In this document: piece after piece, positions 43,199 through 59,638 of the stretch
Numbering within the stretch: position 1 is the stretch's first letter
Layout: the number at the start of each line of letters is the position of its first letter
Source: Loktanella sp. D2R18
GTDB taxonomy: Bacteria > Pseudomonadota > Alphaproteobacteria > Rhodobacterales > Rhodobacteraceae
Direction of reading: 5' to 3'
DNA length: 64,000 nt
Assembly: GCF_003318235.1 (NCBI RefSeq)
Contig: NZ_QOCG01000031.1
Location: forward strand, 62,001-126,000
Translations under genes and position numbers: made by a program
Notes under the pieces: generated by a model
The model's database searches: none
Told to the model about the DNA's origin: nothing
Seen by the model: only the letters and a program-made list of their open reading frames with translations

Positions 43199-43222
43199 GC
43201 CTAAGTGTACTGTCGTTTAGGC
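43199..43222. terminator. Short hairpin between convergent genes
   Basis: GCCTAA (43199-43204) and TTAGGC (43217-43222) form a 6-bp stem around a 12-base loop between two convergent genes; the right arm covers the stop codon of the cyclase gene. It could act as a weak bidirectional terminator. The stem is short, so confidence is low. Confidence 0.35.
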
Positions 43223-46200
43223 CGTAGCGAGCATTTGCTTCAATTGTGTTGCGGCCTGCATTTCCAGCGGGCAGTCGCCCGGTAGCACCAAATCAAATAG
43301 GGGCGCAATCACTTGGCTAACTTCACCATTGCGCCCAGCACTGTGATAAAGTTTGGCCAGATCGATTGCTGCGCGAATTTCCCAAAGCGTACCGCCACCG
43401 AGCTGCGCCAAGCTAATCGCCGCTTTAAGGTGATCTTCTGCGCGGCCCATATCGTGCTCTGCAATCGCAAAGCCTGCGCGCAAGCGGTGTAAATCGGGCA
43501 ACCAGCTTTTCTCTCCGGTTTCGTTCATCATGTTTTCGGCGTCATCCGCGAGCGCTTTAGCATCCTTCACGAGGCCAAGCGCCAGCGCACGGCGCGCGGC
43601 GACCACACGATTACCCGGGACAAGTAGGCGAATGCCGACATCGAGCATTTTTGCTTCGGTTATGCGGAAAGCATCAAGCCCTAAAGCGTCTCCGTCGGCC
43701 ATCCGAAGCAAAGCATATGTCGCCTCGGCCCACAGATGCGAGGACGCGACGTTGTGCTCATTAATCAGCGGTCGCAAGATGCTTAAGTGACGCCTTTCGG
43801 CGGTGACATCATTCGCCACATGGGCGCAAATTACAAAAAGGCCAAGCATCGCACAGGTCGTGTTCGTATGCCCGATGATCCGTGCGCGATCTTCTGCATT
43901 CTTCCGATAGATGTTGGCACGTTGGGTTTGGCCGCGAAACGTCGCCCCAAGTGATTGATAGATTTGCAGCCCAACAATCGGGTCATGACCAAAACGGGCC
44001 GCAAGGTTTTCGCTCGCGACTTGTTCGCTCAGTGCTTCGGCCTCGTCGAGATAAGGTTGGGACTCAATAAAGCGTCCCATCTTAAGGCGCCCAATTGCGG
44101 CTAACCTTTTCGCGACCAGAAGTTGCGCGGTGTCCCCGGATACTTCGGCCAATCCCTTAAGCTCATCCGCACGGGCAATGCTCGTTTCAAGTCGGCCTCG
44201 GAAATAGCTGCTCATCAGAAGGCCATAGATAATATCTCCACGCAGGGGTGTTTCGCCAACTTTGTCGGCCATATCCAATGCTTCTTCGAGTGTTGCGACG
44301 GCCTCGTCTGACCAGAGGCCTTTGCCAGGAGAAAGCGCCACAAACAACTGCACTTTAAGCGCAATCGCGGTTGCCAAAGCTGCCTTATCGTCGGTCGCGA
44401 CCTTAGGCGCATTCAACGCGATCGCGCGGCGTAGGTGTGTCTCGCCTTCTTTATAGGCTGGGCGCGAAATGGCGGCCTTCCCCGCCGCCTGCCAGAGCGT
44501 GATGGCGCGATCAGTGAGCCGCGCAGCTTCTGCGTGGGTCGCTAAAAGCTCGGGGGCGGTGTCTGGTTCTGCCTCGAGTGCCGCAAGAATACGTTTATGA
44601 AACACAGTTCGGCGTTCTTTGACCAGACTTTCATAGGCTGCGTCGCGCACCAACGCGTGTTTGAATATATATTGCACCTGCGGGGCGACCCCGTGTTGAT
44701 GGATCAGCTCGGCGGCAACCAACTGGTCGAACGCGTCGTCTAATTCAACCTCAGGAATTTCGCAGATTTTGGTCATCAATTGATGGCTGAACACGCGCCC
44801 GACGCAGGCGGCGATTTGCGCAATTTCTTTGATTGGAGCCAGACGATCAAGCCGCGCCATCAAACTGTCTTGGAGCGTCGCAGGTATAGCAAAATCGCCA
44901 AGTGAATCGTTGACCAGATAGCCACTTTCACCTTCCGTGAGCGCCCCGGATTCAAGAATGGTCTTTGTAAGTTCTTCAATAAACAAGGGCACGCCATCAG
45001 TGCGGCGCACGATGATATTCATGATCTTTTCTGGCAGGGGTTTCTCGCCAGTTAGCTTAGCAACAATTGCGTAGGTCATTCCCTTGGTCAGGCGGTTAAG
45101 CTGTAGACGCGTGATATTGGGAACGGGACCAAAATCATGATCGAACGGGGGGCGGGCGGTAGCCAGGATCAGAATGCGTTGGCCCGGCAGCGCTGCAAGA
45201 ATAAAATCCAACAGCTCTAGCGATGTTGGATCAATCCAATGCAAGTCTTCAAAAACCAGTAGCACCGGCTTTCTTCGGGCCATACGCAGCAGTATTTCGA
45301 CCAAAGCCTGCATCATGTGGGCACGTTGCTGCGCCGGTGTTCCGTCGGTTTTGCCATAGCGCGTGCTTCCGTCGAGCCCAAGAAGAAGCGCTATCACCCC
45401 ATGGATCGCCGGCGACCCGTTAAAGAGCGCTTCGATCTTATCGAGCCGATCTTCGGTGGTGTCCTCTGTTGTGAACCGCGCTGCGTCGCTAAGCTGTTGA
45501 ACAAATGGATAAAATGCACTTTCTGTGTGATACGGAGAGCATTGATATATCAGCCGCGTGTGATCATCTGCTAGGCTCGCGTCCATAACAGCTTGGACGG
45601 TACGTGATTTGCCGATACCAGCCTCACCGCTCAACAGGATCATTTGGCCCTGTCCAGTCTGCGCCTGTGCCCAGCGGTTCAAGACGGTTTCAATCTCGTT
45701 TTCGCGCCCCACAATTGGGATCAGCGATCCGGTTCTGCGCGCTTCAAACCTACTTTTCGCGCTGGTTTCGCCGTCCACCACAAACGCCTCAATCGGGCGA
45801 CCAATTCCCTTCAGGTCATGTGCGCCAAGCGACGTAATTTTGAAAGTTGCGCCCAAAAGCGGCAGCATTTCACCAGGTATCACCAGCTGATTGGGTTCCG
45901 CCACTGATTGCAATCGCGCTGCCAAATTGGGGGTTTCTCCGATCGCTGCAGCCTCTTGCCGAGCGCCGCCGCCGGTTAGGTCGCCCACAACAACGACCCC
46001 GGACGCAATGCCTACCCGCGACGCAAGCGCCGCACCATCCGGGGTGGTGATTTGTTGAGTTGCCTCAATAACCGCCAAACCCGCGCGCACTGCCCTGTCT
46101 GTGTCGTCTTCGTTTGCATGGGGCCAGCCGAAATAGCACAGCATTCCATCCCCCAAAAGAGTGGCAACAAACCCAGCATATGCGTCGACGACGCTCGCAA

Positions 46201-46558
46201 CGGCTTGCTGATACTGCGTGATGACCTCGCGCATATCTTCGGCGTCCAACCGCATGACCATTTCAGTCGACCCAACAAGATCAACGAACATAACGGTCAG
46301 ATGCCTCCGCTCAGCGGTAGCGGCAAGCGGCATTTTGGCGTCTTCGCGTAATATATCAGGTTGACTAGCCGCGACGGCCCGTGTGATCGCGCCCCAGATT
46401 TTCCGGCGAGGACCTAAGGGTAGGCCAAGTTCTTTGAGATCTTCTTCAAGCAGTTCAGGCAAGGTGTCGACATCGATCTCGGCCTCTTCAAAGACCTTTG
46501 CATATCTCTGAAGGCCAATGTCAGCCAACCAATTTTCAATGCCTGACACCGCGGTCAA
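43217..46558 (-). CDS. SAM-domain class III nucleotide cyclase with AAA ATPase and TPR-like repeats
   Basis: This 1113-residue cytoplasmic protein has four parts. A SAM domain (residues 1-62, GIENWLADIGLQRYAKVFEE) is followed by a class III adenylyl/guanylyl cyclase domain (about 83-265) with metal Asp93 in FVDLVGSTEM and LLGDGMLCYFGWP. An AAA_16/LuxR-type ATPase (about 285-560) has Walker A LSGEAGIGKSRT and Walker B-like VLLVFEDLHWIDP. A long helical-repeat region runs from about 650 to the end. Such proteins are large signalling hubs of the STAND type. Ligand and output are unknown. It is divergent from the TOMM precursor gene with 239 bp between. Confidence 0.9.
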   Translation of the reverse strand: MTAVSGIENWLADIGLQRYAKVFEEAEIDVDTLPELLEEDLKELGLPLGPRRKIWGAITRAVAASQPDILREDAKMPLAATAERRHLTVMFVDLVGSTEMVMRLDAEDMREVITQYQQAVASVVDAYAGFVATLLGDGMLCYFGWPHANEDDTDRAVRAGLAVIEATQQITTPDGAALASRVGIASGVVVVGDLTGGGARQEAAAIGETPNLAARLQSVAEPNQLVIPGEMLPLLGATFKITSLGAHDLKGIGRPIEAFVVDGETSAKSRFEARRTGSLIPIVGRENEIETVLNRWAQAQTGQGQMILLSGEAGIGKSRTVQAVMDASLADDHTRLIYQCSPYHTESAFYPFVQQLSDAARFTTEDTTEDRLDKIEALFNGSPAIHGVIALLLGLDGSTRYGKTDGTPAQQRAHMMQALVEILLRMARRKPVLLVFEDLHWIDPTSLELLDFILAALPGQRILILATARPPFDHDFGPVPNITRLQLNRLTKGMTYAIVAKLTGEKPLPEKIMNIIVRRTDGVPLFIEELTKTILESGALTEGESGYLVNDSLGDFAIPATLQDSLMARLDRLAPIKEIAQIAACVGRVFSHQLMTKICEIPEVELDDAFDQLVAAELIHQHGVAPQVQYIFKHALVRDAAYESLVKERRTVFHKRILAALEAEPDTAPELLATHAEAARLTDRAITLWQAAGKAAISRPAYKEGETHLRRAIALNAPKVATDDKAALATAIALKVQLFVALSPGKGLWSDEAVATLEEALDMADKVGETPLRGDIIYGLLMSSYFRGRLETSIARADELKGLAEVSGDTAQLLVAKRLAAIGRLKMGRFIESQPYLDEAEALSEQVASENLAARFGHDPIVGLQIYQSLGATFRGQTQRANIYRKNAEDRARIIGHTNTTCAMLGLFVICAHVANDVTAERRHLSILRPLINEHNVASSHLWAEATYALLRMADGDALGLDAFRITEAKMLDVGIRLLVPGNRVVAARRALALGLVKDAKALADDAENMMNETGEKSWLPDLHRLRAGFAIAEHDMGRAEDHLKAAISLAQLGGGTLWEIRAAIDLAKLYHSAGRNGEVSQVIAPLFDLVLPGDCPLEMQAATQLKQMLATA

Positions 46559-46797
46559 TTCCCCAAAGCGCTATTGGTCTTACCCACATAGGCCATTTTC
46601 TAAGTTTCTCTCGGTTTCCTAACACATGGAAGACACGCAAACTAGTTTCTGATGGGGCTCGCGGTCAAGAATTGGCGGCACCTTCAAAATGCGAACGATC
46701 GTGATGCATTGTTGCGAAATCAACCGCCTTGAGAGTTTGACCAAAACGTTAATTTGTGCAAGGCTTTGCCCAACAAAGTAATTTTTTGGGAACCATT

Positions 46798-47304
46798 ATG
46801 ACTGATAACAACGATACAAAAAGCCTTGAGATGCGTGTCTCCGATCTGGAAGACAAGTTAGGCTGCGGAAACTTCAGCGAAGCAGAGCTTGCAGCATACC
46901 ACAAGGTTGCTGCCGCATTGGGAGCATGTATGACATCTGCGAACGCGTGCATGGGGGCGTGTATGCCTGCCGCAGGCGCTTGCATGGGGTCTGGCGCGTG
47001 TATGAACACGGCTTGCATGCCTGCCTCTGGCGCATGCATGGGTGCCGGGGCATGTATGACATCAGGAGCGTGCATGCCGGCAGCTGGCGCATGTATGGGA
47101 TCGGGCGCGTGTATGACCTCTTCTGTAGGTGCATGTATGAACATGGCCTGCATGCCTGCCTCTGGCGCATGCATGGGTGCCGGGGCATGTATGACATCTG
47201 CCAACGCTTGTATGGGGGCATGTATGCCTGCCGCTGGCGCGTGTATGGGTGCTTGCATGCCCGCTACAGGTCCCGCTGGCGATAAAAAATCAGACGACGA
47301 TTAA
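46798..47304 (+). CDS. Candidate TOMM/RiPP precursor with 19 Ala-Cys-Met repeats
   Basis: This is a 168-residue protein. I choose ATG 46798 (GGGAACC upstream) over an extension to 46756. Residues 1-42 form a polar, probably helical leader (MTDNNDTKSLEMRVSDLEDK, then LGCGNFSEAELAAYHKVAAA). Residues 43-158 are an array of 19 ACM triplets separated by short linkers rich in Gly, Ser, Thr, Ala, Asn and Pro; Cys spacing is 4-8. The tail is acidic (GDKKSDDD). There is no signal peptide. E1-like, YcaO and SagB-type genes follow on the same strand, so Cys (and perhaps Ser/Thr) are likely heterocyclised to thiazoles/oxazoles. If unmodified it would resemble a metal-binding peptide. I know of no described family with this repeat. 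Confidence 0.85.
   Translation: MTDNNDTKSLEMRVSDLEDKLGCGNFSEAELAAYHKVAAALGACMTSANACMGACMPAAGACMGSGACMNTACMPASGACMGAGACMTSGACMPAAGACMGSGACMTSSVGACMNMACMPASGACMGAGACMTSANACMGACMPAAGACMGACMPATGPAGDKKSDDD
46924..47271 (+). repeat. Coding tandem array of ACM units with higher-order duplication
   Basis: Nineteen GCN-TGY-ATG codon triplets occur in frame. An exact 50-bp direct repeat (47014-47063 and 47149-47198) is 135 bp apart, that is 45 codons covering seven ACM units. The units ACMTSAN-ACMG-ACMPAAG appear at both ends of the array. The array therefore grew by internal duplication and likely varies in length between strains. Confidence 0.9.
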
Positions 47305-47329
47305 TCTTCATCGCCGTATTGCATCAAAC

Positions 47330-47355
47330 TTGGCCTGCTGATTTCAGCGGGCCAA
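47330..47355 (+). promoter_or_regulatory. Hairpin between TOMM precursor and enzyme genes
   Basis: TTGGCCTGCTG (47330-47340) pairs with CAGCGGGCCAA (47345-47355): 11 pairs including one T-G, with a 4-base loop ATTT. It is followed by AATATG, not a T-run. It lies 26 bp after the precursor stop. RiPP operons often have a partial terminator or stabilising stem here, so that precursor mRNA exceeds enzyme mRNA. The structure is clear; function is inferred. Confidence 0.7.
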
Positions 47356-47413
47356 AATATGTGAGGCGCTGTTCATTCTAGGCCTAAAAGATTTGATACG
47401 GGGCAAGAAATAA

Positions 47414-48523
47414 ATGCAGCTTCACAAACCTATGCTGCCAGCGTGTTTTTTGCATTGGACAGACCCGGCACGCACGAGTGATGACGACGTCTTTCGGATA
47501 GTGTCGTGGCGGCGTAGCTTGACGCTGAAGGGTAAGTCGTTTCAAGCTTTCGAAGACAGTGTATTACCGCTGCTGACCGGTGCGCACACCGTTGACCAGA
47601 TATGTGAAAAAGTCGCGCATGTGTTTCAAAAGGATGATGTTGTAGCATCACTCAATATGCTTGCTGCGCAGGGGATTGTGGTGGAAGGCGACGGCCATCA
47701 ACCGGGCCGTGTACCACAACTTGGTTGGCTTGGCGAAGCCGCCCCCGAAGGCCGCGCCGCCCAGCGCAAATTGACTGATGCGCATGTGGTGATCGTGGGG
47801 GCCGGATCACATGGGGCAATAACCGCACGGGCGATGATCGCGGCGGGTATTGGCAAGCTGACAATTGTCGATCCTGCACCTGTTGCCACGGCTGATCTAT
47901 ATTTTTCTGGCATCTACAAGCCCGACGACATTGGCGAAAACCGCGCAGAAACGCTGGCATCGGCGCTGGCACAAAACGATAGCACGACCACGTTGACCGC
48001 CATTGGCTCGCGCCCTGCCGATGTCACCGCGATGAAGCAGCACGTGGAGGGCGCGTCGCTGGTGCTATGCTGCGTTGAATCGGGGGAACTGAACCTCGCG
48101 CTTCTGCTCAACCTTGCATGCCGTGAATCGCGGGTGCCGTGGATTGCCGCATCTCTTGAAGGCACCGAACTTGTCATCGGACCCGGTTTTTTCCACAGCG
48201 CAAACGCGCCTTGCTATATGTGTTGGCGGCTGCGCGAAATTGCAGGGGCAGCGAACCCGCAATCGCGATTTGCCGTTGAACAATATCTTGACCGCCTGCG
48301 CACAGACCTGTCTGGGCGGCGCGAAAACCTTGCACCCTCTGCGGATATTGTTGGCGGCATGCTATCCGTCGAAGCTTTGACATGGCTGACCGGGGCCAGT
48401 GCCCCGAACCTTGACGGGCGCTTTATCGTGGTTGGTTTGCCCGGCCTGCGGATGGAAAAGCACATGGTTTTGCGCAAGCCCGGCTGCCCCGTTTGCAGTG
48501 GTAATCAGGACAGTACGCAATGA
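47414..48523 (+). CDS. TOMM cyclodehydratase partner, E1/ThiF-like (SagC-type) with leader-binding domain
   Basis: The 369-residue protein has an N-terminal winged-helix, PqqD-like region (about residues 25-95, VFRIVSWRRSLTLKGKSFQA) expected to bind the precursor leader. An E1-like Rossmann fold follows (VVIVGAGSHGAITARAMIAA). Two zinc-binding pairs, CYMC (about residue 270) and CPVC at the C-terminus, are typical of the E1/ThiF superfamily. Such C proteins present the precursor to YcaO. It overlaps the YcaO gene by 4 bp. It is the only gene here that could recognise the leader. Confidence 0.88.
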   Translation: MQLHKPMLPACFLHWTDPARTSDDDVFRIVSWRRSLTLKGKSFQAFEDSVLPLLTGAHTVDQICEKVAHVFQKDDVVASLNMLAAQGIVVEGDGHQPGRVPQLGWLGEAAPEGRAAQRKLTDAHVVIVGAGSHGAITARAMIAAGIGKLTIVDPAPVATADLYFSGIYKPDDIGENRAETLASALAQNDSTTTLTAIGSRPADVTAMKQHVEGASLVLCCVESGELNLALLLNLACRESRVPWIAASLEGTELVIGPGFFHSANAPCYMCWRLREIAGAANPQSRFAVEQYLDRLRTDLSGRRENLAPSADIVGGMLSVEALTWLTGASAPNLDGRFIVVGLPGLRMEKHMVLRKPGCPVCSGNQDSTQ

Positions 48524-49818
48524 ATGATCGCGTTGATGCCGCAAAGCTGACCGAGGCACTGGTGAGCCGCCGTTGCGGGATCGTAACCGACCTATCCCCG
48601 CAAGCACGTGGCCCCGAAGAACCCAGCCCGCCGCATCTGTGGAACGCGACACTCACAAATTACAATTTTCAGACTGTGCCGCTCGCGATGCGCCTCACCG
48701 GGGGCAAAGGGTTGACCGAAGAAGCTGCGAAACTTGCAGCCCTGGGCGAAGCGATGGAACGCTATTCGGCCTTTCACTGGGACCCAGCACGCCTGCATGT
48801 CGGGCCAGCGTCGGACACTGCGATTACCCCAGCGGAATCCGTGCTGTATTCTGCCGATCAATACGCTGCCGGGTTGCCCTATCAACCGTGGTCGCGGACA
48901 AACCAAACGAGCTGGATCAAGGGAACGGAGCTCCCCCCTGGCGCTGCGGTCGATATGCCCGCTTCGCTGGTTTATTTGGTGGGTCCGCCGCCCAATCCAG
49001 CGGATTATTTCACCGCTGTCACGTCAAATGGGTTGGCTGCGGGCCGGGATTTGCCCCACGCGATTTTGGGAGGGCTGAACGAGGTGATCGAGCGCGATGC
49101 GTTTATGATCACGTGGTTGAACCGGCTCCCGGCCACCACAATTGCAACACCGCAAAGCGGTTGTAACGCCGCGCAAATCATTCGCCATTATGATCGGTTC
49201 GGGGTCAAAGTTAGACTCTTGTCGCTATATACCGATCAAGCCCCCTATGTGATCATGGCTATCGCCGAAGAGCCGACAGGCTACCGTCTGGTCGGGTTAG
49301 GCTGTGATCTCGATCCGGCCGGGGCCGTTGATAAAGCAATGTTTGAGCTGTGCCAATTGCGCCCAGGAATGGCCGCGCGGATGCATGGGAACGATTATCA
49401 GACCCGGTTAAAATCCTATAAGGATGTGCAAAGCATTGATGACCATCCGCTTTTTCACGCAATCCCTGCAAACGCGGGTGAATTTGATTTTCTGACGCAA
49501 ACGGGCGCAACCGTAACGTTAGACGACATGCCACGACCATCATACGCGACAAACCAAGAGGCGCTTACGTTAACAGTAGACGCCGCCGTGAAAACAGGCG
49601 CACGTGTGGCCTATGCCGATATTACGGCGCCCGATATTGCGCCGCTTGGGCCACGGGTTGTGCGGGTGATCGCGACAGGGATGCAGCCGATCCACTTTGG
49701 ACACGACCAAGGCCGGTTTGGCGGCGCGCGTCTGTACGATGCGCCAGTGACTTGGGGTTTGCGGGACACCCCGCTGACCAAAGCCGGGCTTAACCCATGC
49801 CCGCATCCATTGGCCTAG
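48520..49818 (+). CDS. YcaO-domain cyclodehydratase (SagD-type)
   Basis: The 432-residue YcaO protein uses ATP to activate amide oxygens so that Cys/Ser/Thr side chains close to azolines. ATP/Mg-binding motifs include ALGEAMERYSAFHWD (about residue 75-90) and GGLNEVIERDAFMITWLNR (about 185-205), with the Glu residues of the YcaO ATP site. The C-terminus reads NPCPHPLA, which retains the Pro-x-Pro-x-Pro motif near the end that is needed for catalysis in azoline-forming YcaO enzymes. Pairing with a separate C protein is the classical TOMM arrangement. Confidence 0.92.
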   Translation: MNDRVDAAKLTEALVSRRCGIVTDLSPQARGPEEPSPPHLWNATLTNYNFQTVPLAMRLTGGKGLTEEAAKLAALGEAMERYSAFHWDPARLHVGPASDTAITPAESVLYSADQYAAGLPYQPWSRTNQTSWIKGTELPPGAAVDMPASLVYLVGPPPNPADYFTAVTSNGLAAGRDLPHAILGGLNEVIERDAFMITWLNRLPATTIATPQSGCNAAQIIRHYDRFGVKVRLLSLYTDQAPYVIMAIAEEPTGYRLVGLGCDLDPAGAVDKAMFELCQLRPGMAARMHGNDYQTRLKSYKDVQSIDDHPLFHAIPANAGEFDFLTQTGATVTLDDMPRPSYATNQEALTLTVDAAVKTGARVAYADITAPDIAPLGPRVVRVIATGMQPIHFGHDQGRFGGARLYDAPVTWGLRDTPLTKAGLNPCPHPLA

Positions 49819-49821
49819 CAT

Positions 49822-50574
49822 ATGAGCAGTGACGTCAACGATACCACCGGTCTTTCGCGCCTGTTTCACCTGAATTCAGAACCGTGGGTTAATGAAAATC
49901 AGCGACCCAACGCGCCGTTTTCGCAAGAGACCAAAAACGACCCCCAGACTGCGCGCATTGCCTTGCCGGATACAGCTGCTGGTACCATTGATCAGCTTGC
50001 CGCCGCACGCAGATCAACACGCACCTTTGCTGATACGCCGCTTGCCTTGCACGATTTCGCGGCATTGCTGCGCGCCGGGTATAAAACGCTTGGGCCCGAT
50101 AAAATGGAGGGTGGCATGCAAGCCCTGCGGCGTCCGGTGCCATCGGCGGGCGGGTTGTATCCGCTAGAGATTTATGCGCTGGTTCGAAACGTCGATGGGC
50201 TTGCCAAGGGGATTTACCACTACGACAGCAAGGCCGACGATCTTGAGATCATGCACGAGGGACCATGGGAAAATCAGGCGTGTAAGGCGTTCTTGACGTG
50301 GTCATTTGTCGCCCAAGCACCAGTTGTTTTGTGCATTGGGGCCGTTTTCGCGCGGACGCAGCGCAAATACGGGCCACGCGGGTATCGCTATATCCTGATC
50401 GAAGCGGGGCACGTCACCCAAAACCTGTGTTTAGCCGCGACAGATATGGCGCTATCAAGCCTCTGCTTAGGCGGATATTCCGATAGCGTGCTGAATGATC
50501 TCATTGGTTTGGACGGCCAGAAAGAGGCGATCATCTACGCGGTCGGACTCGGGGCCGCAGCGCATAGCGATTAG
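49822..50574 (+). CDS. SagB-type FMN-dependent azoline dehydrogenase
   Basis: The 250-residue nitroreductase-fold protein has AARRSTRTFADTPLALHDFA (FMN phosphate binding), RRPVPSAGGLYPLEIYALV and YGPRGYRYILIEAGHVTQNL, all typical of SagB/McbC-type dehydrogenases that oxidise azolines to aromatic azoles. It lies 3 bp after the YcaO stop. Its presence implies that the final product carries oxidised thiazoles/oxazoles. Confidence 0.92.
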   Translation: MSSDVNDTTGLSRLFHLNSEPWVNENQRPNAPFSQETKNDPQTARIALPDTAAGTIDQLAAARRSTRTFADTPLALHDFAALLRAGYKTLGPDKMEGGMQALRRPVPSAGGLYPLEIYALVRNVDGLAKGIYHYDSKADDLEIMHEGPWENQACKAFLTWSFVAQAPVVLCIGAVFARTQRKYGPRGYRYILIEAGHVTQNLCLAATDMALSSLCLGGYSDSVLNDLIGLDGQKEAIIYAVGLGAAAHSD

Positions 50575-52911: not shown

Positions 52912-54498
52912 ATGCAAAAAAGTAGACCTGATACAGACTTCACACCTGGCCCATATCCTCAGGTAACACGGCAGCGGGTCAATGCGCTTGAAATTCTAGA
53001 TGCGGCATATGTCGCGAATAGGATACCCATTGAATGGATATTGGATCACGCAAAACGGCTCACTGAGAACTTTGAAACGCTATTTGCTCTGAACTACCGA
53101 ACCGCAGGGAACTATTCCGACGGGGACGGAAATGAGATTGCGGGGTCCAAATTTGATGCTGTTTCCGGACTTGTTAAATCGCGTCTGACCTTTGGTGATG
53201 ACGGTGCGCAGGCATTGACGATGTCATATACCCGTTGGGACAGTGATCTTGATGATACGGAATATTCGCAAACCGGCACCTCAGGGTTTGGAACAGTTGA
53301 TCGGGAAATCATCGATGATACGCTTGCCATTCGGTATGAAAACCCTGTCTTGGGGAATGACCTTATCGATCTAGATGTCGTATTAAGCTATGCGAGCACG
53401 CAAGTTGAGCAATCGGATTCATCCACTCCGTATGGGCCTTGCGTCTCGGCATCATTGTTCTGCGATTCAGAATACGGCTACGAAACAACAAGCCTAAAAG
53501 GCGAAAACACAGCAACACTTGGTGGTGCAACCTACGACGCATATATCACGAAAGGTGTACAGTTATCGCACCTTGAACGTGTTGCAACAACTGTTGCAGG
53601 CGATCTGGGCTATCATCCAGAGGGCACAGACGACAAAATTGGCGTCTACGCCCAAGGTGAATTCATCTTCAATGATCGCCTGACAATCACCCCCGGTATG
53701 CGCGCAGATTTCATTGCCCTCGAAGCCTCTAGCGATTTGGGGTCTACCGATGCGGACGAGGTTGCTGTGTCTCCCAAATTGGCGGCGCACTATGAAATCA
53801 ACGACACTTATGCGGTCTTTGGGTCCCTTGCGCACACCGAGCGCGCGCCAACAATCGACGAGATTTTCTCGTATGATGATAGCGATGGCGAGATGTATAG
53901 TCTCGACCTGACCACTGAAACCGCAAACAGTGCGGAATTCGGCGTCAGCGCTTCATATCGTGATCTGTTCGGCGGTGCGAACGCGATGGATGTAAAAGCG
54001 ACGTTCTTCTATTCAGAAATTGATGATCTAATTGCGCTCGATAGCACTGCTGGAACGCCCTATTATGAAAACATTGATTCATCAAAGATTTACGGGCTCG
54101 AGTTCGAGGTCGCATTCGAAGCGGATCGCATGTTTATGCGCGCTGCATATTCCGATGTGCGCGGCGAAGACCTATCAACTGGCGAAACGCTGACTTCTAT
54201 TCCAGTACGCAACTTGAACCTGACGGTTGGTGGCCGCGATCATACCCGTGGCATTGAATACGGCTGGAATGACGGCTTCTTCGACGAAATTAGCTATGGC
54301 GCGGGCGACGATTATGCCAGCTACGCAGTTCACGATCTATTTTTTGACTGGAGCCCCCAACAGGGTGCCCTGCAAGGCATCAAAGCGGGCCTGCGCGTCA
54401 ACAATGTTCTCGACACCCAATACGAAAATTCACTGGCCGGAGATCCGGGCGAAGGCCGGTCATGTGAAATTAGCTTGGCCCGTACATTTGAGTTTTAG
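52912..54498 (+). pseudogene. N-terminally truncated TonB-dependent receptor (barrel only)
   Basis: The 528-residue frame contains beta-barrel sequence from about residue 48 to the end (ALNYRTAGNYSDGDGNEIAG, SPKLAAHYEINDTYAVFGSL AHTERAPTIDEI, C-terminal EISLARTFEF). There is no signal peptide and no plug; the first 45 residues (MQKSRPDTDFTPGPYPQVTR) do not look like a receptor. Nothing upstream supplies the plug: the 200 bp before it is a hairpin and non-coding. A full-length relative would need about 200 more residues. It is probably a remnant of a second receptor. The barrel frame is still open, so decay or deletion is recent or the part is functional in an unknown way. Confidence 0.65.
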
Positions 54499-54948
54499 AT
54501 GAATACAAAACTTTCCAAACTTGGACCTGCTTTGGCTGCTGCTTCCCTCGTGGTGACGCCAGATATGCTCCTTGGACAAGAGGGGGCTGCCCAAGCAGCC
54601 CCCTCAATTTCCGTTGAAATGAACCAAATCCAGCAACACGAAGGTGCTTGTCAGTTAACCTTTATGCTGCGCAATACCTTGGAGTCGGACATCGCGACGC
54701 TGGTGTTCGAAACAGTGCTGCTAACCAAAGACGGGGCGGTCAATCGCCTGACCCTTTTTGATATGCGGGATGTTCCCTCTGGCACACCACGCGTGCGTCA
54801 ATTCAATGTGCCAGCTTTGGCCTGTGTCGATCTTGGGCAGGTTCTGATCAACGGGGTTGCGGAATGCTCTGGCAACGCACTCGATGCACAAACCTGCATA
54901 CAGGCACTGCAATTTCCGTCCCGTATTGATGTGGAGATTCTAGGTTGA
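54499..54948 (+). CDS. Small exported protein linked to ExbBD/TonB genes
   Basis: The protein has 149 residues with an N-terminal export signal (MNTKLSKLGPALAAASLVVT). Mature sequence has four cysteines (HEGACQLTF, PALACVDLG, GVAECSGNA, AQTCIQA) and an immunoglobulin-like beta pattern (LTFMLRNTLESDIATLVFET). Similar proteins occur beside exbB/exbD in Rhodobacterales, to my knowledge without assigned function. It overlaps exbB by 4 bp and probably acts in the periplasm with the Ton system. Confidence 0.7.
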   Translation: MNTKLSKLGPALAAASLVVTPDMLLGQEGAAQAAPSISVEMNQIQQHEGACQLTFMLRNTLESDIATLVFETVLLTKDGAVNRLTLFDMRDVPSGTPRVRQFNVPALACVDLGQVLINGVAECSGNALDAQTCIQALQFPSRIDVEILG

Positions 54949-55559
54949 ATATTGTGGAACTTGTGAAGGCCCAAATAAGCGCAATCTACGAATTGGGTGG
55001 GCCCGTTGTCGTCTTAATGATGGCTCTGTCCGTGTTGTCGCTGGCGGTCATTTTGTGGAAACTTTGGCAATTTACGCGCCTCGGCGTGGGACGGAATGTA
55101 CAGATTTCCCAAGCCATTACTGCGTGGGATGCTGGCGATGAAGACAACGCCGCGCAAGCCCTCTCGAAAAGCAAAAACGCATTGGCGGATGTCCTGAAAA
55201 CGCGGCAGGTCAACGGGCCAAAAACACGCGTCGAAGCCAAGGCAAGTGCCCATTTGGCGCGGCTTGAATCTGGTTTTCGTATTCTGGATAGTATCGCGCA
55301 AATAGCCCCGCTTTTAGGTTTGTTCGGGACTGTTTTGGGTATGATCAACGCGTTTCAGGCCCTGCAAGAAGCAGGCAATTCGGTCGATCCGTCCTTGCTC
55401 GCCGGTGGTATCTGGGTTGCGCTTCTCACCACGGCCGCGGGACTTGCTGTCGCAATGCCGACGTCGCTTGTGCTGACATTTTTTGATAGCCGTGTCGCGC
55501 GCGAACGGGTGCTTGCTGAAAGCGCGATTGAATCAAAATTTGCAGCACGTTCTGCGTAG
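54945..55559 (+). CDS. exbB: ExbB/TolQ-family proton-channel protein
   Basis: The 204-residue protein has three membrane segments (about residues 17-37, 115-140 and 150-175). The family motif LGLFGTVLGMINAFQALQEA GNS and the following GGIWVALLTTAAGLAVAMPT carry the conserved residues of the proton path. It starts at TTG or ATG close to 54945 overlapping the previous stop. It forms the ExbB-ExbD motor for TonB. Confidence 0.92.
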   Translation: MNIVELVKAQISAIYELGGPVVVLMMALSVLSLAVILWKLWQFTRLGVGRNVQISQAITAWDAGDEDNAAQALSKSKNALADVLKTRQVNGPKTRVEAKASAHLARLESGFRILDSIAQIAPLLGLFGTVLGMINAFQALQEAGNSVDPSLLAGGIWVALLTTAAGLAVAMPTSLVLTFFDSRVARERVLAESAIESKFAARSA

Positions 55560-55565
55560 ATTATC

Positions 55566-55952
55566 ATGGCAATCAGTGGTGCAAAAACACGTCGAAAACA
55601 CATCTCGATGACGTCATTGATCGACGTGATCTTTTTATTGCTGTTGTTTTTCATGCTCAGCTCAACCTTTACCCGGTTTGCTGAAATTCCATTGACAGGC
55701 GCATCTGCTGGCCAAGGGGCTGCATCGGCAGAAACGCCACTCCTGTTTGTACGCCTTTTCGAAGAACAGATCGAATTGAATGGGAAATCCCATGCGATTG
55801 ACGAATTAAGCGCACAGATTTCTCAAATGGAAATCAAAGAAGGACAACAGCTTTTGGTCGCCCCAGATGATACTGTCACGTCCCAACGGCTTGTTGATCT
55901 ACTTGTCGTTTTGGCGGCGTATCCCGACCTGACCGTTGTTGTATTGGAGTAA
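55566..55952 (+). CDS. exbD: ExbD-family protein 1
   Basis: The 128-residue protein has one membrane segment near residues 15-37 containing the proton-carrying Asp in ISMTSLIDVIFLLLLFFMLS, and a periplasmic domain. It is the first of two adjacent ExbD proteins. It follows exbB by 6 bp. Confidence 0.92.
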   Translation: MAISGAKTRRKHISMTSLIDVIFLLLLFFMLSSTFTRFAEIPLTGASAGQGAASAETPLLFVRLFEEQIELNGKSHAIDELSAQISQMEIKEGQQLLVAPDDTVTSQRLVDLLVVLAAYPDLTVVVLE

Positions 55953-55955
55953 CTG

Positions 55956-56348
55956 ATGCCCCTATCAGCCAAGCCTCGTCGCGCGCAATCAGAGCCAACA
56001 ATCGCGCTGATCAACATCGTCTTTTTGATGCTCATTTTTTTTATGATTGCGGGTGCGCTTGCGCCGACGCTGGATGATGAAATTAAGCTAATTGCGACGG
56101 ATGAACTGGACGGGCGCGCGCCGCCGAATACGGCAGTCCTGCGCGAAGATGGGACGCTGTACTTGCGCGGTGAAGCCGTGACGGTTGAACAGGCTATTGC
56201 CGCATCTGAAACGGGCGAAAACGGACGCGATATTCGGTTGGTTGCGGATCGCGCTGTGCCGGCGAACCTGTTGATGGAACGGGTCGGGGAATTGCGGGCA
56301 GCGGGCGCAACTTCGGTCTGGATTGTCACTGAACGGGGGCTTGAATGA
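55956..56348 (+). CDS. exbD: ExbD-family protein 2
   Basis: The 130-residue protein has one membrane segment, IALINIVFLMLIFFMIAGAL. The position of the usual proton-carrying Asp is occupied by Asn (LINIVFLM versus LIDVIFLL in ExbD1). It may form a heterodimer with ExbD1 in which only one partner carries the proton. It overlaps tonB by 4 bp. Confidence 0.9.
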   Translation: MPLSAKPRRAQSEPTIALINIVFLMLIFFMIAGALAPTLDDEIKLIATDELDGRAPPNTAVLREDGTLYLRGEAVTVEQAIAASETGENGRDIRLVADRAVPANLLMERVGELRAAGATSVWIVTERGLE

Positions 56349-57271
56349 TGTCGCCGCGCGTCTCTGCATTAATCTTTTTGTTGGTCTCTTTGGGTGTTCA
56401 TATTGGATCAATGCAGGCCATTGCTGTACCCGATACAACGCTGTCAGCCGCTAGTCCGCCCGCTGCACTTGTTTCATACGGGAACAATTTTGCCGATATG
56501 GTGATGGGCAGCCCAGAAACCACCCCAGAGGTCATCGATGCGGTAGAAGCGGAACAGACCGAAAGCCCAGCGCTCGCCCAACCGACCCAATCCCTGCAGC
56601 CAGAGACAACAGAAACAACAGACGAGGCCCAAACCTCGGATGCACCCATCTTGGACCCGATCGAGGTCACATCTGGCACCGTTGATATACTTGCCGCAGT
56701 AACCCCATCGACAGCGTCAGCAGCCCCTGCCGCTATTCCAACCACACTGAGCACGATAGAACCGGTCGAGGTTACAACATCGCAACCAGATCGGTTAGAG
56801 GCCCTGCCTGATGTGCAAGTCAACGACGCGAGCCTTGCAACGGTTCGACCTACCCAGCGCCCAAGCGATCTTGGCCAAACCGTTGCGTCAGGAAACGCTA
56901 ACCAAGACGCCCGACGCGGGTCTACGATCGGAACCCAACAGGTTAGCCAGCAATCCCAACAAAGTGGTCAAGGGCAACAAGTTGACGAAATCGCCATCCA
57001 AGCCGCTCGTGAAGCAGCTGCAAACTATGGCAACGCCGTCATGCGCAAGATCAGTCGCACGCGGCAGGAAAGAATACGCGCACGCGGAACGGCAATTGTT
57101 CAGTTTCGCGTTGCAGCATCTGGGCAAATTGGATCGATAGGGATCGCACAAAGCTCTGGGAACGCAAGCTTAGACAGCGCCGCCGTGAACCACATCCGTC
57201 GCTCTGCCCCGTTTCCTGCCCCGCCCGCAGGGGCGGCGACATCATTTACAATCCCGATCGAATGGCGTTAG
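56345..57271 (+). CDS. tonB: TonB-family energy transducer
   Basis: The 308-residue protein has an N-terminal membrane anchor (VSALIFLLVSLGVHIGSMQA), a long Pro/Thr/Ser/Glu-rich periplasmic spacer (about residues 45-210) and a C-terminal TonB domain (about 225-308) with RGTAIVQFRVAASGQIGSIG and SGNASLDSAAVNHIRRSAPF. The C-terminal domain contacts the receptors' TonB boxes. It completes the receptor-ExbB-ExbD-ExbD-TonB set. Confidence 0.92.
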   Translation: MMSPRVSALIFLLVSLGVHIGSMQAIAVPDTTLSAASPPAALVSYGNNFADMVMGSPETTPEVIDAVEAEQTESPALAQPTQSLQPETTETTDEAQTSDAPILDPIEVTSGTVDILAAVTPSTASAAPAAIPTTLSTIEPVEVTTSQPDRLEALPDVQVNDASLATVRPTQRPSDLGQTVASGNANQDARRGSTIGTQQVSQQSQQSGQGQQVDEIAIQAAREAAANYGNAVMRKISRTRQERIRARGTAIVQFRVAASGQIGSIGIAQSSGNASLDSAAVNHIRRSAPFPAPPAGAATSFTIPIEWR

Positions 57272-57324
57272 CGCTAAATAGTTTTTAAACCTTGACGCCC
57301 CACCGTAAACCTTTCAAAAAACCC

Positions 57325-57515
57325 GCGATGGTTTCCAACCGCCGAATATGCGGTCGGAATGAAAAGGGAATACGGTGAGGAAGAGCGACAACGCGCTGAA
57401 TCCGTAACTGCCCCCGCAACTGTGAGCGGTGAGTGACCCCGATGAACACCACTGAGCCTTGGCTCGGGAAGGTTCGGGAAAACGCTGACCCGCAAGTCAG
57501 GAGACCTGCCATCAG
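57325..57515 (+). ncRNA. Cobalamin (adenosylcobalamin) riboswitch
   Basis: Conserved elements are present in order: GAATGAAAAGGGAATACGGT (57357-57376), CCGTAACTGCCCCCGCAACT (57404-57423), the GGCTCGGGAAGGTTCGGGAA region near 57460-57480, and the B12 box CGCAAGTCAGGAGACCTGCC (57491-57510). Ends are approximate. It is on the plus strand after tonB and before the FecCD-type ABC genes, so binding of cobalamin should lower expression of the downstream uptake genes. Confidence 0.95.
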
Positions 57516-57899
57516 GCGGCATTGAGCCGTTTCTGCAACTCAACCCAGACGGGGCGTCTGGATCGGAGATCATGATGGCAACACGGAAACCCCCGTGCTT
57601 TAAAACATGTCTGCCCCGCGCCCTGCATATGCGCAGAGGGCGTTATGAACGTGCGTCAAAGCCTTAGCGGCCATTTACCTGCGACTGCCCTTCAGATCGG
57701 TCGAGAATTAGCCGTTTTATTTGAGTGTGTTACCCGTTTTATTGAGGCCGTCGAGTATGTTGTTTTTATAAACGGTATAATTCGGAACCGTCGCATATTG
57801 CCAATTGCAACAGATACACATTGTTATAGTATTACACGTGCGTTTAGATGTTGAACCGGAGACGTTCCATGCAATTCACAAAAATCAACTTCGGCCATT
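57511..57899 (+). other. 389-bp leader between cobalamin riboswitch and btuD-like gene
   Basis: This is a long stretch with no recognisable gene. It holds a possible 31-codon frame (57572-57667), a weak hairpin CGCCCT/AGGGCG (57619-57642), an AT-rich segment around 57740-57840 and a 14-codon frame running into the ABC ATPase start. The distance is unusual for a riboswitch acting on the next gene. Confidence 0.5.
57572..57667 (+). CDS. Possible short frame directly after the riboswitch
   Basis: ATG 57572 is preceded by GGAG at proper spacing, and the frame encodes 31 residues (MMATRKPPCFKTCLPRALHM, then a basic tail). It resembles no protein I know. It may be the stub of the gene once controlled by the riboswitch, a leader peptide, or chance. 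Confidence 0.25.
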   Translation: MMATRKPPCFKTCLPRALHMRRGRYERASKP

Positions 57900-57913
57900 A
57901 TGAAATCGGCTAG
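57869..57913 (+). CDS. Possible 14-codon leader peptide overlapping btuD start
   Basis: ATG 57869, with CCGGAG upstream, encodes MQFTKINFGHYEIG and stops at 57913, overlapping the ABC ATPase start (57900) in another frame. No separate ribosome site is evident for the ATPase, so translation of the short frame could deliver ribosomes to it by coupling. Confidence 0.35.
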   Translation: MQFTKINFGHYEIG

Positions 57914-58700
57914 TCTTGCCGTAAATGGGGTAAGTTGGGCGCCTCATAAATCGGATCTGCCAGTGCTGCACCCCACCTCATTCAGTGTGGATGCGGGGCG
58001 CGTGTTGGGCGTGGTCGGGCCGAATGGTGCGGGTAAATCGACCCTATTGCGGCTTTTATACCGGTTCCAAAAACCGCAAACGGGCAACGTGTGCGTTGGG
58101 GGTCAAGACATCTGGGCAATGAACGCGCGTGATTGCGCAAAACAGATTTCTGCGGTGTTGCAAGAACAGGCCTCTGCCTTTGGGCTGACCGTCCGCGAAA
58201 TTGTCCGCCTTGGCCGCACACCGCACCGGTCCGGTTTTGCAGCATCTGGGGCAGGCGATGAGCGGATCGTAAACACGGTCTTGGAAAAGCTCAGCCTGCA
58301 TCCGTTTGCTGACCGCAATTTCGGCACTTTGTCAGGAGGTGAACGGCAACGGGTGATGGTCGCGCGGGCCTTGGCCCAAGAACCGCAGGTATTAATCCTC
58401 GATGAGCCGACAAACCATCTGGATGTGCGTCACCAGCTAGAGGTGGTATCACTCATCCAAAATCTTGGCCTGACCATCGTGGTGTCTTTACATGATCTCA
58501 ATATGGCGGCCGGGGTGTGCGACGATGTTCTGGTGCTCAAAGACGGGCAACCACAAGGGTTTGGCCCACCGCAAACGCTTTTGACCGACAGCCTTGTCTC
58601 TCACACCTTTCGGGTTGCTGCGCAGCGCGAACAGCTTGCCGCTAGCGGGGCATCCCATTTTTCATTTTCACTTCCCAACGAAACAGGACCAAGATCATGA
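57900..58700 (+). CDS. btuD: ABC importer ATPase, BtuD/FecE type
   Basis: The 266-residue ATPase has Walker A GPNGAGKSTL, signature LSGGERQRVM and Walker B QVLILDEPTNHLDVRHQLEV. It belongs to the siderophore/haem/B12 class. The upstream cobalamin riboswitch favours corrinoid transport. It overlaps the binding-protein gene by 4 bp. Confidence 0.88.
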   Translation: MKSASLAVNGVSWAPHKSDLPVLHPTSFSVDAGRVLGVVGPNGAGKSTLLRLLYRFQKPQTGNVCVGGQDIWAMNARDCAKQISAVLQEQASAFGLTVREIVRLGRTPHRSGFAASGAGDERIVNTVLEKLSLHPFADRNFGTLSGGERQRVMVARALAQEPQVLILDEPTNHLDVRHQLEVVSLIQNLGLTIVVSLHDLNMAAGVCDDVLVLKDGQPQGFGPPQTLLTDSLVSHTFRVAAQREQLAASGASHFSFSLPNETGPRS

Positions 58701-59632
58701 AACTCACTCTGACCACTTTGGCAGCACTTGCCATTGCTGGCGCCGCAGCGGCACAAACGACGGTGCAAAGCTGCAACCGCGAAGTCACATTTGACGCGCC
58801 GCCACAGGCGGCAATTTCCAATGACGTTAACCTGACTGAAATGATGCTGGTGCTTGGGCTTGCGGATCGCATGGTCGGCTACACAGGTATTTCGGGCTGG
58901 AAAACGCTGGATGAAAACATGACCGCCGGCATTGAAGAACTGCCCGAACTGTCATCACAGTACCCATCCAAAGAAGTGCTGATTGGCGCTGACGCTGATT
59001 TCTTCTTTGCCGGTTGGAACTATGGCATGAGGGTCGGCGGCGAAGTGACGCCCGAAACATTGGAACCTTTCGGCATTCAAGTTTATGAGCTGACCGAAAG
59101 CTGCATTCACATCGGTGAAAAAGACGCGGCCTCTATGGACGATATGTACAACGATCTGCGCAATCTCGGTGCGATCTTTGATGTTTCAAATCGCGCAGAG
59201 GTCTTGATCGAAAACTACCAGATCGATCTTGAAGACTTTCTATCCGATCAACCCATTTTGGACGAAGCCCCACGGGTCTTTATCTATGACAGCGGCGAAG
59301 ATGTGCCGTTTACGGCGGGTCAATACGCCATGCCAAACGCGCTGATCGAAGCGGCTGGCGGGACCAACATTATGAATGACCTTGATAAAAGCTGGGCAAC
59401 AATTGGCTGGGAAGCCGTGGTCGAACGTAACCCCGAAGTCATCGTGATCGTGAACTATGGCGAAGTCACAGCGGACCAGAAACGCGCATTCATGATGTCG
59501 AATCCTGCCTTTGCGGATATCGACGCAGTGCGCAACGACCGCTTTGTTGTGCTTGAATATGTCGAAGCGACACCTGGGCCACGCAATATCGCCGCCATCA
59601 AAACGCTTGCCGCGGCATTCCGCGCCGAGTGA
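58697..59632 (+). CDS. btuF: Periplasmic binding protein, BtuF-like
   Basis: The 311-residue protein has a signal peptide (MKLTLTTLAALAIAGAAAAQ) and two lobes joined by a helix, as in class III (BtuF/FhuD/FecB) binding proteins: VNLTEMMLVLGLADRMVGYT in the first lobe, AVVERNPEVIVIVNYGEVTA in the second. Two cysteines (SCNREV, ESCIHIG) are present. Ligand is probably a corrinoid, given the riboswitch; Fe-chelates or haem cannot be excluded. Confidence 0.82.
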   Translation: MKLTLTTLAALAIAGAAAAQTTVQSCNREVTFDAPPQAAISNDVNLTEMMLVLGLADRMVGYTGISGWKTLDENMTAGIEELPELSSQYPSKEVLIGADADFFFAGWNYGMRVGGEVTPETLEPFGIQVYELTESCIHIGEKDAASMDDMYNDLRNLGAIFDVSNRAEVLIENYQIDLEDFLSDQPILDEAPRVFIYDSGEDVPFTAGQYAMPNALIEAAGGTNIMNDLDKSWATIGWEAVVERNPEVIVIVNYGEVTADQKRAFMMSNPAFADIDAVRNDRFVVLEYVEATPGPRNIAAIKTLAAAFRAE

Positions 59633-59638
59633 TTTGAC

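What the first reader, a model, noticed from the sequence alone, without database searches (positions are those of the whole stretch)
46798..50574. A TOMM/LAP-type RiPP cluster whose precursor is a 19-fold Ala-Cys-Met array
Seen in sequence: a 168-residue protein with a polar leader, 19 exact ACM triplets at 4-8 residue spacing, and an acidic tail, followed on the same strand by an E1/ThiF-like protein with an N-terminal winged-helix region, a YcaO with a terminal PxPxP motif and a SagB-type FMN dehydrogenase. Known: these three enzymes together make thiazoles and oxazoles from Cys/Ser/Thr. Each Cys is placed between Ala and Met, which I do not recognise from any characterised TOMM (repeated Cys-Xaa-Xaa cores are known in Bacillus heterocycloanthracin-type peptides, but not with Met). 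If all Cys are converted, the product would be a poly-thiazole with regularly placed thioethers, suited to soft-metal binding such as Cu(I). The cluster has no exporter, leader protease or immunity gene. This is my best candidate for an undescribed system.
Basis: partly seen in the sequence, partly recalled or inferred. Interest (0 to 1): 0.96.

Follow-up and report, generated by a model that had tools for sequence, protein, structure and literature searches.

The report
Thiazole-peptide array with cyclase partner
A Yoonia-like bacterium encodes a peptide with 19 copies of an alanine-cysteine-methionine motif beside enzymes predicted to turn those cysteines into thiazole rings, and a gene for a likely cyclase-type sensor lies next to the peptide gene in all seven genus genomes where the full-length peptide gene was found, so the peptide may belong to an undescribed signalling or warfare circuit.

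Summary
46798-47304 encodes a 168-residue precursor with 19 ACM triplets; an RRE-E1 protein, a YcaO and a SagB dehydrogenase follow. The cluster is best read as a LAP/TOMM-type RiPP pathway; the chemistry is inferred, not measured. (1) The precursor belongs to a wide leader family (K-S/T-LEMRV..LEDKL..): 579 database proteins match its profile, and Paracoccus, Nostoc and Ginsengibacter loci pair such precursors with related enzymes. The window precursor matches no Pfam or NCBIfam model. (2) Met after Cys is not conserved: genus arrays are Ala-Cys-X, X nearly uniform within an array but M, Q or F between species, so regular thioethers for Cu(I) are not a family property. (3) The divergent 1113-residue protein at 43217-46558 (SAM domain, class III cyclase, AAA/STAND-like ATPase, TPR-like) was missed. 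It lies next to the precursor in 7 of 8 genus genomes that have the pathway, in four mutually different surroundings; in one genome the enzymes are about 270 kb away and it is still beside the precursor. Best explanation: a thiazole-peptide cassette coupled to a cyclic-nucleotide switch. Whether the peptide is ligand, weapon or merely regulated is open.

The parts
43217..46558 (-). Divergent 1113-aa protein: SAM (sterile alpha motif) domain, class III cyclase domain, AAA_16 ATPase (STAND-like), TPR-like solenoid; the conserved neighbour of the precursor
   Evidence: SAM_1, Guanylate_cyc and AAA_16 over their Pfam cut-offs, TPR_12 below its cut-off in the window but TPR models over cut-off in orthologues L037 and L039; orthologue at 63% identity or more in 7 of 56 genus genomes, each next to the precursor; AF2 model mean pLDDT 71, but under 50 over most of the cyclase domain; best Foldseek hit a STAND-TPR protein, 6mfv, E 5.8e-11, TM only 0.17/0.27
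46736..46761 (+). Promoter-like element TTTGAC-N13-TGTGCAA upstream of the precursor (candidate only)
   Evidence: TTTGAC 60-62 nt before the start in 6 of 6 loci the script could place (L005 not placed, G399 not tried); TGTGCAA exact in 5 of 6. With up to 2 mismatches the pattern occurs in the window no more often than chance, 2 against 2.5 expected; what is conserved is the position
46798..46923 (+). Precursor, leader region (residues 1-42): KSLEMRVSDLEDKL...AELAAYHKVAAALG
   Evidence: Leader aligned with Paracoccus, Nostoc and Ginsengibacter precursors; leader pattern in 119 of the 120 listed database relatives
46924..47259 (+). Precursor, core region: 19 Ala-Cys-Met triplets, every core Cys preceded by Ala and followed by Met
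47260..47304 (+). Precursor, charged tail PATGPAGDKKSDDD and stop
   Evidence: Charged tails also close the six other genus arrays; the eroded G399 array lacks one
47414..48523 (+). C protein: predicted RRE (leader-binding) domain fused to an E1/ThiF-like domain, with CYMC...CPVC tetracysteine
   Evidence: TIGR03882 and ThiF; Cys267, 270, 358, 361 invariant in 10 of 10 aligned C proteins; fold hits MccB and PaaA
48520..49818 (+). D protein: YcaO/SagD cyclodehydratase, the only YcaO found in the genome; predicted to form thiazolines from Cys
   Evidence: TIGR03604; single PF02624 match in own genome; matches LynD, TruD and MusD; EAMERYS, NEVIERD and PCPHP line up with LynD
49822..50574 (+). B protein: SagB-type FMN dehydrogenase, predicted to oxidise thiazolines to thiazoles
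   Evidence: TIGR03605; matches the microcin B17 protein McbC, E 1.8e-10

Best explanation
This is a ribosomal-peptide cassette in which an Ala-Cys-X array precursor is predicted to be docked by an RRE-E1 protein and its cysteines likely converted to thiazoles by a YcaO/SagB pair, while a divergently encoded cyclase-ATPase-TPR-like protein that lies beside the precursor gene likely couples the peptide to a cyclic-nucleotide switch. Shown by sequence: the leader-array precursor, the C, D and B enzymes, the shared leader across phyla, the near-uniform residue after Cys within each array and its change between species, and the physical linkage of the cyclase gene to the precursor. Inferred: (a) the RRE binds the LEMRV..LEDKL leader; (b) YcaO cyclises Cys, the constant Ala in front being a small residue that suits cyclodehydration (recalled preference); (c) SagB aromatises the rings (about -20 Da per Cys, up to -381 Da); (d) the TPR-like/STAND-like part of the partner responds to the peptide, its precursor or a condition linked to it and drives the cyclase, which then controls production or response. 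My commitment on role: a diversifying peptide, recognised by residue X, that works with its own dedicated cyclase switch; a metal chelator is less likely.
For: Enzymes: TIGR03882, TIGR03604 and TIGR03605 over cut-off; PDB relatives LynD, TruD, MusD, MccB, PaaA and McbC. Precursor-enzyme pairing: of the 22 YcaO loci, 11 of the 12 listed first (L002-L013) have a precursor with this leader and a Cys array in the locus; the twelfth (L006, genome G443) has it on the same contig about 270 kb away. In the genus 8 of 56 genomes have the YcaO and all 8 have an AC-X array: 7 by profile and G399 with an eroded 74-aa one. Core: Ala precedes every core Cys in six of seven arrays (12 of 15 in L004); X is M 19/19 (window), 19/19 (L002), 18/18 (L003), 12/15 (L004), F 13/13 (G440), Q 19/19 (G443), Q 14/17 (L005). 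Cyclase: matches of 63-100% identity in exactly the 7 genomes whose precursor the profile finds; of the other 49 only G434 has a match at E <= 1e-80, at 33%. It is adjacent in all 7, including G443 where C-D-B lies elsewhere. Four surroundings (window type, L005, L037, L039) share no flanking sequence pairwise at tblastx E 1e-10, though L005 offers only 4.5 kb and 0.3 kb. The cyclase domain is its best-kept part (lowest pairwise identity 0.77; SAM 0.58, AAA 0.53, TPR/C-terminal 0.52). STAND-type best folds: 6mfv, Avs3, Apaf-1. Paracoccus L008 and L009 have a BTAD protein with a weak TPR match downstream of B.
Against: No product, binding or cyclic nucleotide has been measured. Cyclase homologues at 51-53% identity occur in 5 of 388 sampled family genomes; none of the five has the YcaO at E <= 1e-60 and no array is seen in their flanks of about 1-1.5 kb, so the protein family exists without the peptide. 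G399 has C-D-B and a short array but no cyclase match. Residue 133 is Thr in all 7 orthologues where I recall the adenine-specifying Lys, so nucleotide and even activity are uncertain. The models are of moderate confidence (61.5 and 71.0); the cyclase domain is not modelled reliably and the STAND match has low TM. TPR is below Pfam's cut-off in the window protein. BTAD genes were found in 2 of the 4 radical-SAM-type loci only. Linkage could reflect shared regulation. The first Pro of PxPxP is Gln in 4 of 7 genus YcaOs.
Confidence: 0.5

Rival explanations
1. It is an ordinary narrow-spectrum LAP antibacterial, like phazolicin, exported by a pump encoded elsewhere; the cyclase protein is only its regulator and the X residue tunes target or uptake.
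For: Same enzyme set; phazolicin is an azole peptide of Rhizobium that inhibits close relatives (PMC10128002, abstract start, passages). Species-specific cores fit antagonism between relatives. The precursor gene is unusually similar to L002's (dS 0.046 against 0.24-0.33 for C, D, B and cyclase), as if exchanged between strains. ABC transporter genes lie upstream of two Nostoc precursors (L011, L013).
Against: No exporter or immunity gene lies inside the cluster and no flank gene of the window is shared with L005, L037 or L039, whereas phazolicin has the self-resistance pump PhzE. An array of 13-19 Cys is larger than phazolicin with its eight azoles.
Confidence: 0.25
2. One reading: a poly-thiazole with regular Met thioethers that binds Cu(I) or another soft metal, perhaps a metallophore taken up by the neighbouring TonB-dependent receptor.
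For: In the window, L002 and L003 a TonB receptor follows B (best models heme-type in the window and L002, below cut-off) with heme-type uptake genes nearby in L002; L008 and L009 also have one upstream (L008's passes the heme model cut-off). Cys and Met are soft donors, and in G443 5 of 19 Cys have Met at +2.
Against: Met directly after Cys is replaced by Gln or Phe in G440, G443, L005 and G399, and Met is absent from the core of L007, L008 and L026. tblastn finds no such receptor in the L037, L039 or L006 loci, and one search lists none in L004.
Confidence: 0.1
3. The cyclase gene is merely a neighbour carried along on the same mobile cassette and has nothing to do with the peptide.
For: Homologues exist without the peptide, and G399 has the peptide cluster without the cyclase.
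Against: In G443 the pair is together although C-D-B is about 270 kb away; adjacency holds in four mutually different surroundings and down to 63% identity.
Confidence: 0.15

Closest known systems
[quoted passage not shown] Cox et al. 2015, PMC4603692, named sections read)
   Same: RRE-E1 + YcaO + SagB enzymes and a leader-core precursor rich in Cys
   Different: Core is a long Ala-Cys-X array; no exporter or immunity gene inside the cluster; a cyclase-ATPase neighbour. Product not shown.
Anabaenasins (predicted group in Cox et al. 2015; section read, supplement not)
   Same: Discrete cyclodehydratase; Gly- and Cys-rich precursors. My Nostoc loci L010, L011 and L013 (YcaO 38-39% identical to the window's) fit that description
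   Different: The section gives no sequence, so identity with my Nostoc loci is untested; alphaproteobacterial AC-X arrays and the cyclase are not in the sections I read
Heterocycloanthracin/sonorensin (TIGR03601)
   Same: Repeated Cys-Xaa-Xaa cores acted on by a YcaO (recalled)
   Different: The window precursor does not match TIGR03601; 2 of 10 aligned relatives do, best E 1.5e-7. C-D is fused there and discrete here
rSAM_ocin_1 (TIGR03975) clusters, as in Paracoccus L007-L009 and genome G119 (L026)
   Same: Same leader family and related C-D-B; YcaO 62-66% identical to the window's
   Different: They add a radical SAM C-methyltransferase; core CVIQQC-like with a Gly-rich tail. The window cluster has neither
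STAND ATPases with TPR sensors (6mfv) and Pycsar cyclases
   Same: Domain order and best folds of the partner protein; its cyclase domain matches Pycsar PycC models (best E 6.6e-16)
   Different: No Pycsar effector was found among the proteins scanned, and the partner is tied to a RiPP

Membership tests
LAP/TOMM RiPP | YcaO (D) of the cyclodehydratase type with ATP motif and C-terminal Pro-rich end | tested here: met
   TIGR03604 over cut-off; aligned to LynD to the last Pro; ends PCPHPLA, though QCPHPLA in 4 of 7 genus YcaOs
LAP/TOMM RiPP | E1-like C protein with leader-binding RRE | tested here: met
   TIGR03882 over cut-off; tetracysteine; fold hits MccB and PaaA with a moderate model
LAP/TOMM RiPP | Precursor with conserved leader and Cys/Ser/Thr core beside the enzymes | tested here: met
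LAP/TOMM RiPP | Azoles actually installed (about -20 Da per residue) | not testable with these tools
   needs mass spectrometry
Heterocycloanthracin (TIGR03601) | Precursor matches the family model | tested here: not met
   No NCBIfam match for the window precursor at E up to 1
Heterocycloanthracin (TIGR03601) | Fused C-D cyclodehydratase | tested here: not met
   C and D are separate genes overlapping by 4 bases; the fusion as a feature of this group is from PMC4603692
Anabaenasin | Membership in the Cox 2015 D-protein group | not tested
   Supplement not readable here; only a textual likeness
NHLP / Nif11 leader RiPPs | Leader matches the nitrile-hydratase or Nif11 leader models | tested here: not met
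   No such model among the NCBIfam or Pfam families matched by any of 10 precursors at E up to 1
STAND ATPase with TPR (partner protein) | P-loop NTPase of the STAND type plus TPR sensor | tested here: inconclusive
   AAA_16 over cut-off, Walker A GEAGIGKS, helical C-terminal half at high pLDDT, STAND proteins as best folds; but TM is low and TPR is below cut-off in the window, above it in L037 and L039
Class III nucleotide cyclase (partner protein) | Metal-binding Asp pair, Asn/Arg and adenine-specifying residues (assignment recalled) | tested here: inconclusive
   Guanylate_cyc over cut-off; D93, D137, T209-P-N211 and R215 invariant in six aligned orthologues; expected Lys is Thr133
Pycsar anti-phage system | PycC cyclase next to a cNMP-activated effector | tested here: inconclusive
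   Only the cyclase domain matches PycC; precursor, C, D and B match no Pycsar effector; C matches E1-E2 models; other neighbours were not scanned

The most novel reading that the evidence does not exclude
A thiazole-peptide / STAND-cyclase circuit: the azole array made from a species-specific Ala-Cys-X precursor is the ligand of its own TPR-STAND cyclase, X being the recognition code, so a RiPP acts through a cyclic-nucleotide second messenger inside or between sister cells, possibly as an alarm or self-recognition system.
Probability: 0.2. Interest if true: 0.92.

Novelty: new variant of a known kind. Interest (0 to 1): 0.62.

Why it matters
The leader family is large (579 database proteins at E <= 0.01 with only 7989 candidates scored; I saw 120 of them), spans at least three phyla among the loci, and I found no Pfam or NCBIfam model for it, so it marks a little-explored branch of azole peptides. 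The homogenised X residue is a natural experiment on what a poly-azole array is for. A RiPP gene linked to a STAND-like cyclase would, if the link is functional, join peptide natural products to second-messenger signalling; a one-gene deletion and a mass spectrum can test it.

Tried and rejected
Single-sequence search of the precursor found nothing (906 candidates, none at E <= 0.001); the alignment search did. A search with five genus arrays gave 9 proteins, one an ACV array fragment. Simple patterns for CRP/FNR- and Fur/Irr-like sites gave nothing convincing in the cyclase-precursor intergenic region. A TonB receptor as part of the system: next to B only in the window, L002 and L003 among the genus loci. 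M16 proteases in the Nostoc loci: a guess from memory that was wrong; they are ammonium transporters, with an ABC transporter in two. A Nonomuraea YcaO relative (35%) shows no such precursor (+ strand only). L014-L023 (YcaO 33% or less) show none. Family sampling with the YcaO: 2 of 394 genomes at E <= 1e-60. Class sampling with A2: 1 of 387 genomes, at most 11 candidates scored per genome. Phylum sampling: 7 of 397, the window's own and six of one genus with leader-like peptides. The A2 profile missed the G399 array even at E 10, so profile counts are lower bounds. Literature: searches returned nothing; others listed papers. In what I read of them (sections or passages) these arrays and a cyclase-RiPP pair of this kind are not described, but adenylate cyclases near graspetide/YcaO loci are mentioned in PMC8939145 (one passage). 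These searches cover only the open-licence library.
Full report
WHAT IS THERE. The reported ORF is real: 46798-47304, 168 aa, 19 ACM triplets, plus one leader Cys. Shuffled residues 43-168 give at most 6 ACM in 20,000 trials. C (47414-48523), D (48520-49818) and B (49822-50574) follow on the same strand and pass the curated cut-offs of TIGR03882, TIGR03604 and TIGR03605. D is the only YcaO found in the genome and aligns with LynD to the last Pro of PCPHP. C has an invariant tetracysteine; its model, of moderate confidence, finds MccB and PaaA first, both, as I recall, RRE-bearing E1 enzymes of RiPP pathways. B matches McbC.

A WIDE LEADER FAMILY. A scan of genome contigs with D gave 22 loci. 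Of the first 12 (L002-L013), 11 have a precursor with a leader of the type KTLEMRVAELEDKL in the locus. L006 lacks it nearby, but its genome (G443) has it on the same contig about 270 kb away. In the ten others (L014-L023, YcaO 25-33%) none was seen. Cores differ: ACM (Yoonia), CVIQQCVRPC (Paracoccus), GCGRCF (Nostoc), closely spaced Cys (Ginsengibacter). The alignment search found 579 proteins at E <= 0.01 with 7989 candidates scored. Of the 120 listed, 119 have the leader pattern, 115 a CINEC-like motif and 115 a GFGxLG-like tail. Among 10 precursors scanned, no Pfam match is better than E 0.04; in NCBIfam TIGR03601 matches 2 (best E 1.5e-7) and the rest is E 0.0018 or worse; the window precursor matches nothing.

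ARRAYS ARE ALA-CYS-X. In the genus, the profile finds the precursor in 7 of 56 genomes and the YcaO is in 8 of 56. The eighth, G399, has a 74-aa array with a truncated leader that the profile misses even at E 10. The residue after core Cys: window M 19/19, L002 M 19/19, L003 M 18/18, L004 M 12/15, G440 F 13/13, G443 Q 19/19, L005 Q 14/17 (two sides of an N gap). G399 has five ACF units. A database fragment, P0121, has ACV; its 3' end may be adapter (recalled). Ala precedes every core Cys of these seven arrays except three in L004. Each array is thus nearly homogeneous at X while species differ. That argues against Met thioethers as the function and for a varied recognition residue; against this, 5 of 19 Cys in G443 have Met at +2.

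THE MISSED PARTNER. On the other strand, about 240 bp upstream, lies a 1113-aa protein: SAM, cyclase and AAA_16 over Pfam cut-offs, TPR below. In the genus a match of 63-100% identity occurs in exactly the 7 genomes whose precursor the profile finds, next to it in all 7; a 33% match in G434 is the only other at E <= 1e-80. G399, with the eroded array, has none. Window, L002, L003 and L004 share left flanks. The window-type surroundings and those of L005, L037 and L039 share nothing pairwise at tblastx E 1e-10, with only 4.5 kb and 0.3 kb to compare in L005. In G443 the enzymes and the precursor are apart, and the cyclase is with the precursor. I take this as the strongest sign that the pair is functional. 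Against it, homologues at 51-53% occur in 5 of 388 family genomes that lack the YcaO at E <= 1e-60 and show no array in 1-1.5 kb of flank. The cyclase domain is best conserved (0.77); SAM (0.58), AAA (0.53) and the C-terminal part (0.52) are less so. The model's best folds are STAND proteins, led by a STAND-TPR ATPase, at E 5.8e-11 but TM 0.17/0.27, and the cyclase domain itself is not modelled reliably. Thr133 where I recall a Lys leaves nucleotide choice open. In Paracoccus L008 and L009 a BTAD protein with a weak TPR match follows B; in L007 and L026 it was not found.

RADICAL SAM BRANCH. L008's gene between precursor and C is a TIGR03975 C-methyltransferase, with homologues in L007, L009 and L026. 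The window cluster has no such gene; the rest of the genome was not searched for it.

HOW IT PROBABLY WORKS. Inferred: the RRE binds the leader, D cyclises Cys after Ala, B aromatises; up to 19 thiazoles would remove about 381 Da. A crude hydropathy scan shows no signal-like stretch in the leader. The partner may read the peptide and make a cyclic nucleotide, or only control expression; the data do not separate these.

COMPARISON WITH THE LITERATURE. I read the outline, passages and named sections of Cox 2015. Its anabaenasins (Gly- and Cys-rich precursors, discrete cyclodehydratase) resemble my Nostoc loci, but the supplement is out of reach. Passages only were read of PMC7470986, PMC11583998, PMC2887384, PMC10128002 and PMC8939145; other papers were seen in listings only.

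SCORES. LAP-type chemistry 0.85; cyclase functionally tied to the peptide about 0.6; peptide as ligand about 0.2. Overall interest 0.62.

Noticed in passing
window 52912-54498; junction 53049-53057: Heme-uptake locus cut by a deletion: compared with L002 about 4.8 kb is missing (L002 14540-19311, with a heme-type ABC ATPase, permease, binding-protein and weakly HutX-like genes), 9 bp shared at the junction, leaving a TonB receptor ORF without its plug part.
   Followed up: yes
window 46751-47500: Precursor and its near flanks are 96-100% identical to L002 in 150-base blocks while other blocks are 80-97%; dS of the precursor is 0.046 against 0.24-0.33, suggesting gene exchange or DNA-level constraint.
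   Followed up: partly
L075 7366-7590 (G399): Eroded 74-aa precursor with truncated leader and five ACF units beside C, D and B, in a genome without the cyclase match.
   Followed up: partly
L057-L067 (genus g653, family f151): Leader-only matches in short ORFs in 6 genomes of one genus; the three printed (L059, L065, L067) have a leader-like region but no Cys array: possible free-standing origin of the leader.
   Followed up: partly
window 54945-60688: ExbB/ExbD/ExbD/TonB-like genes by eye and an ABC importer whose ATPase and binding protein best match F420-0-type models below cut-off next to the cluster.
   Followed up: no
L004 12381-17715 and L006 13631-19514: Peptide-type ABC importer genes (SBP_bac_5 binding proteins) lie downstream of B in two loci.
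   Followed up: no
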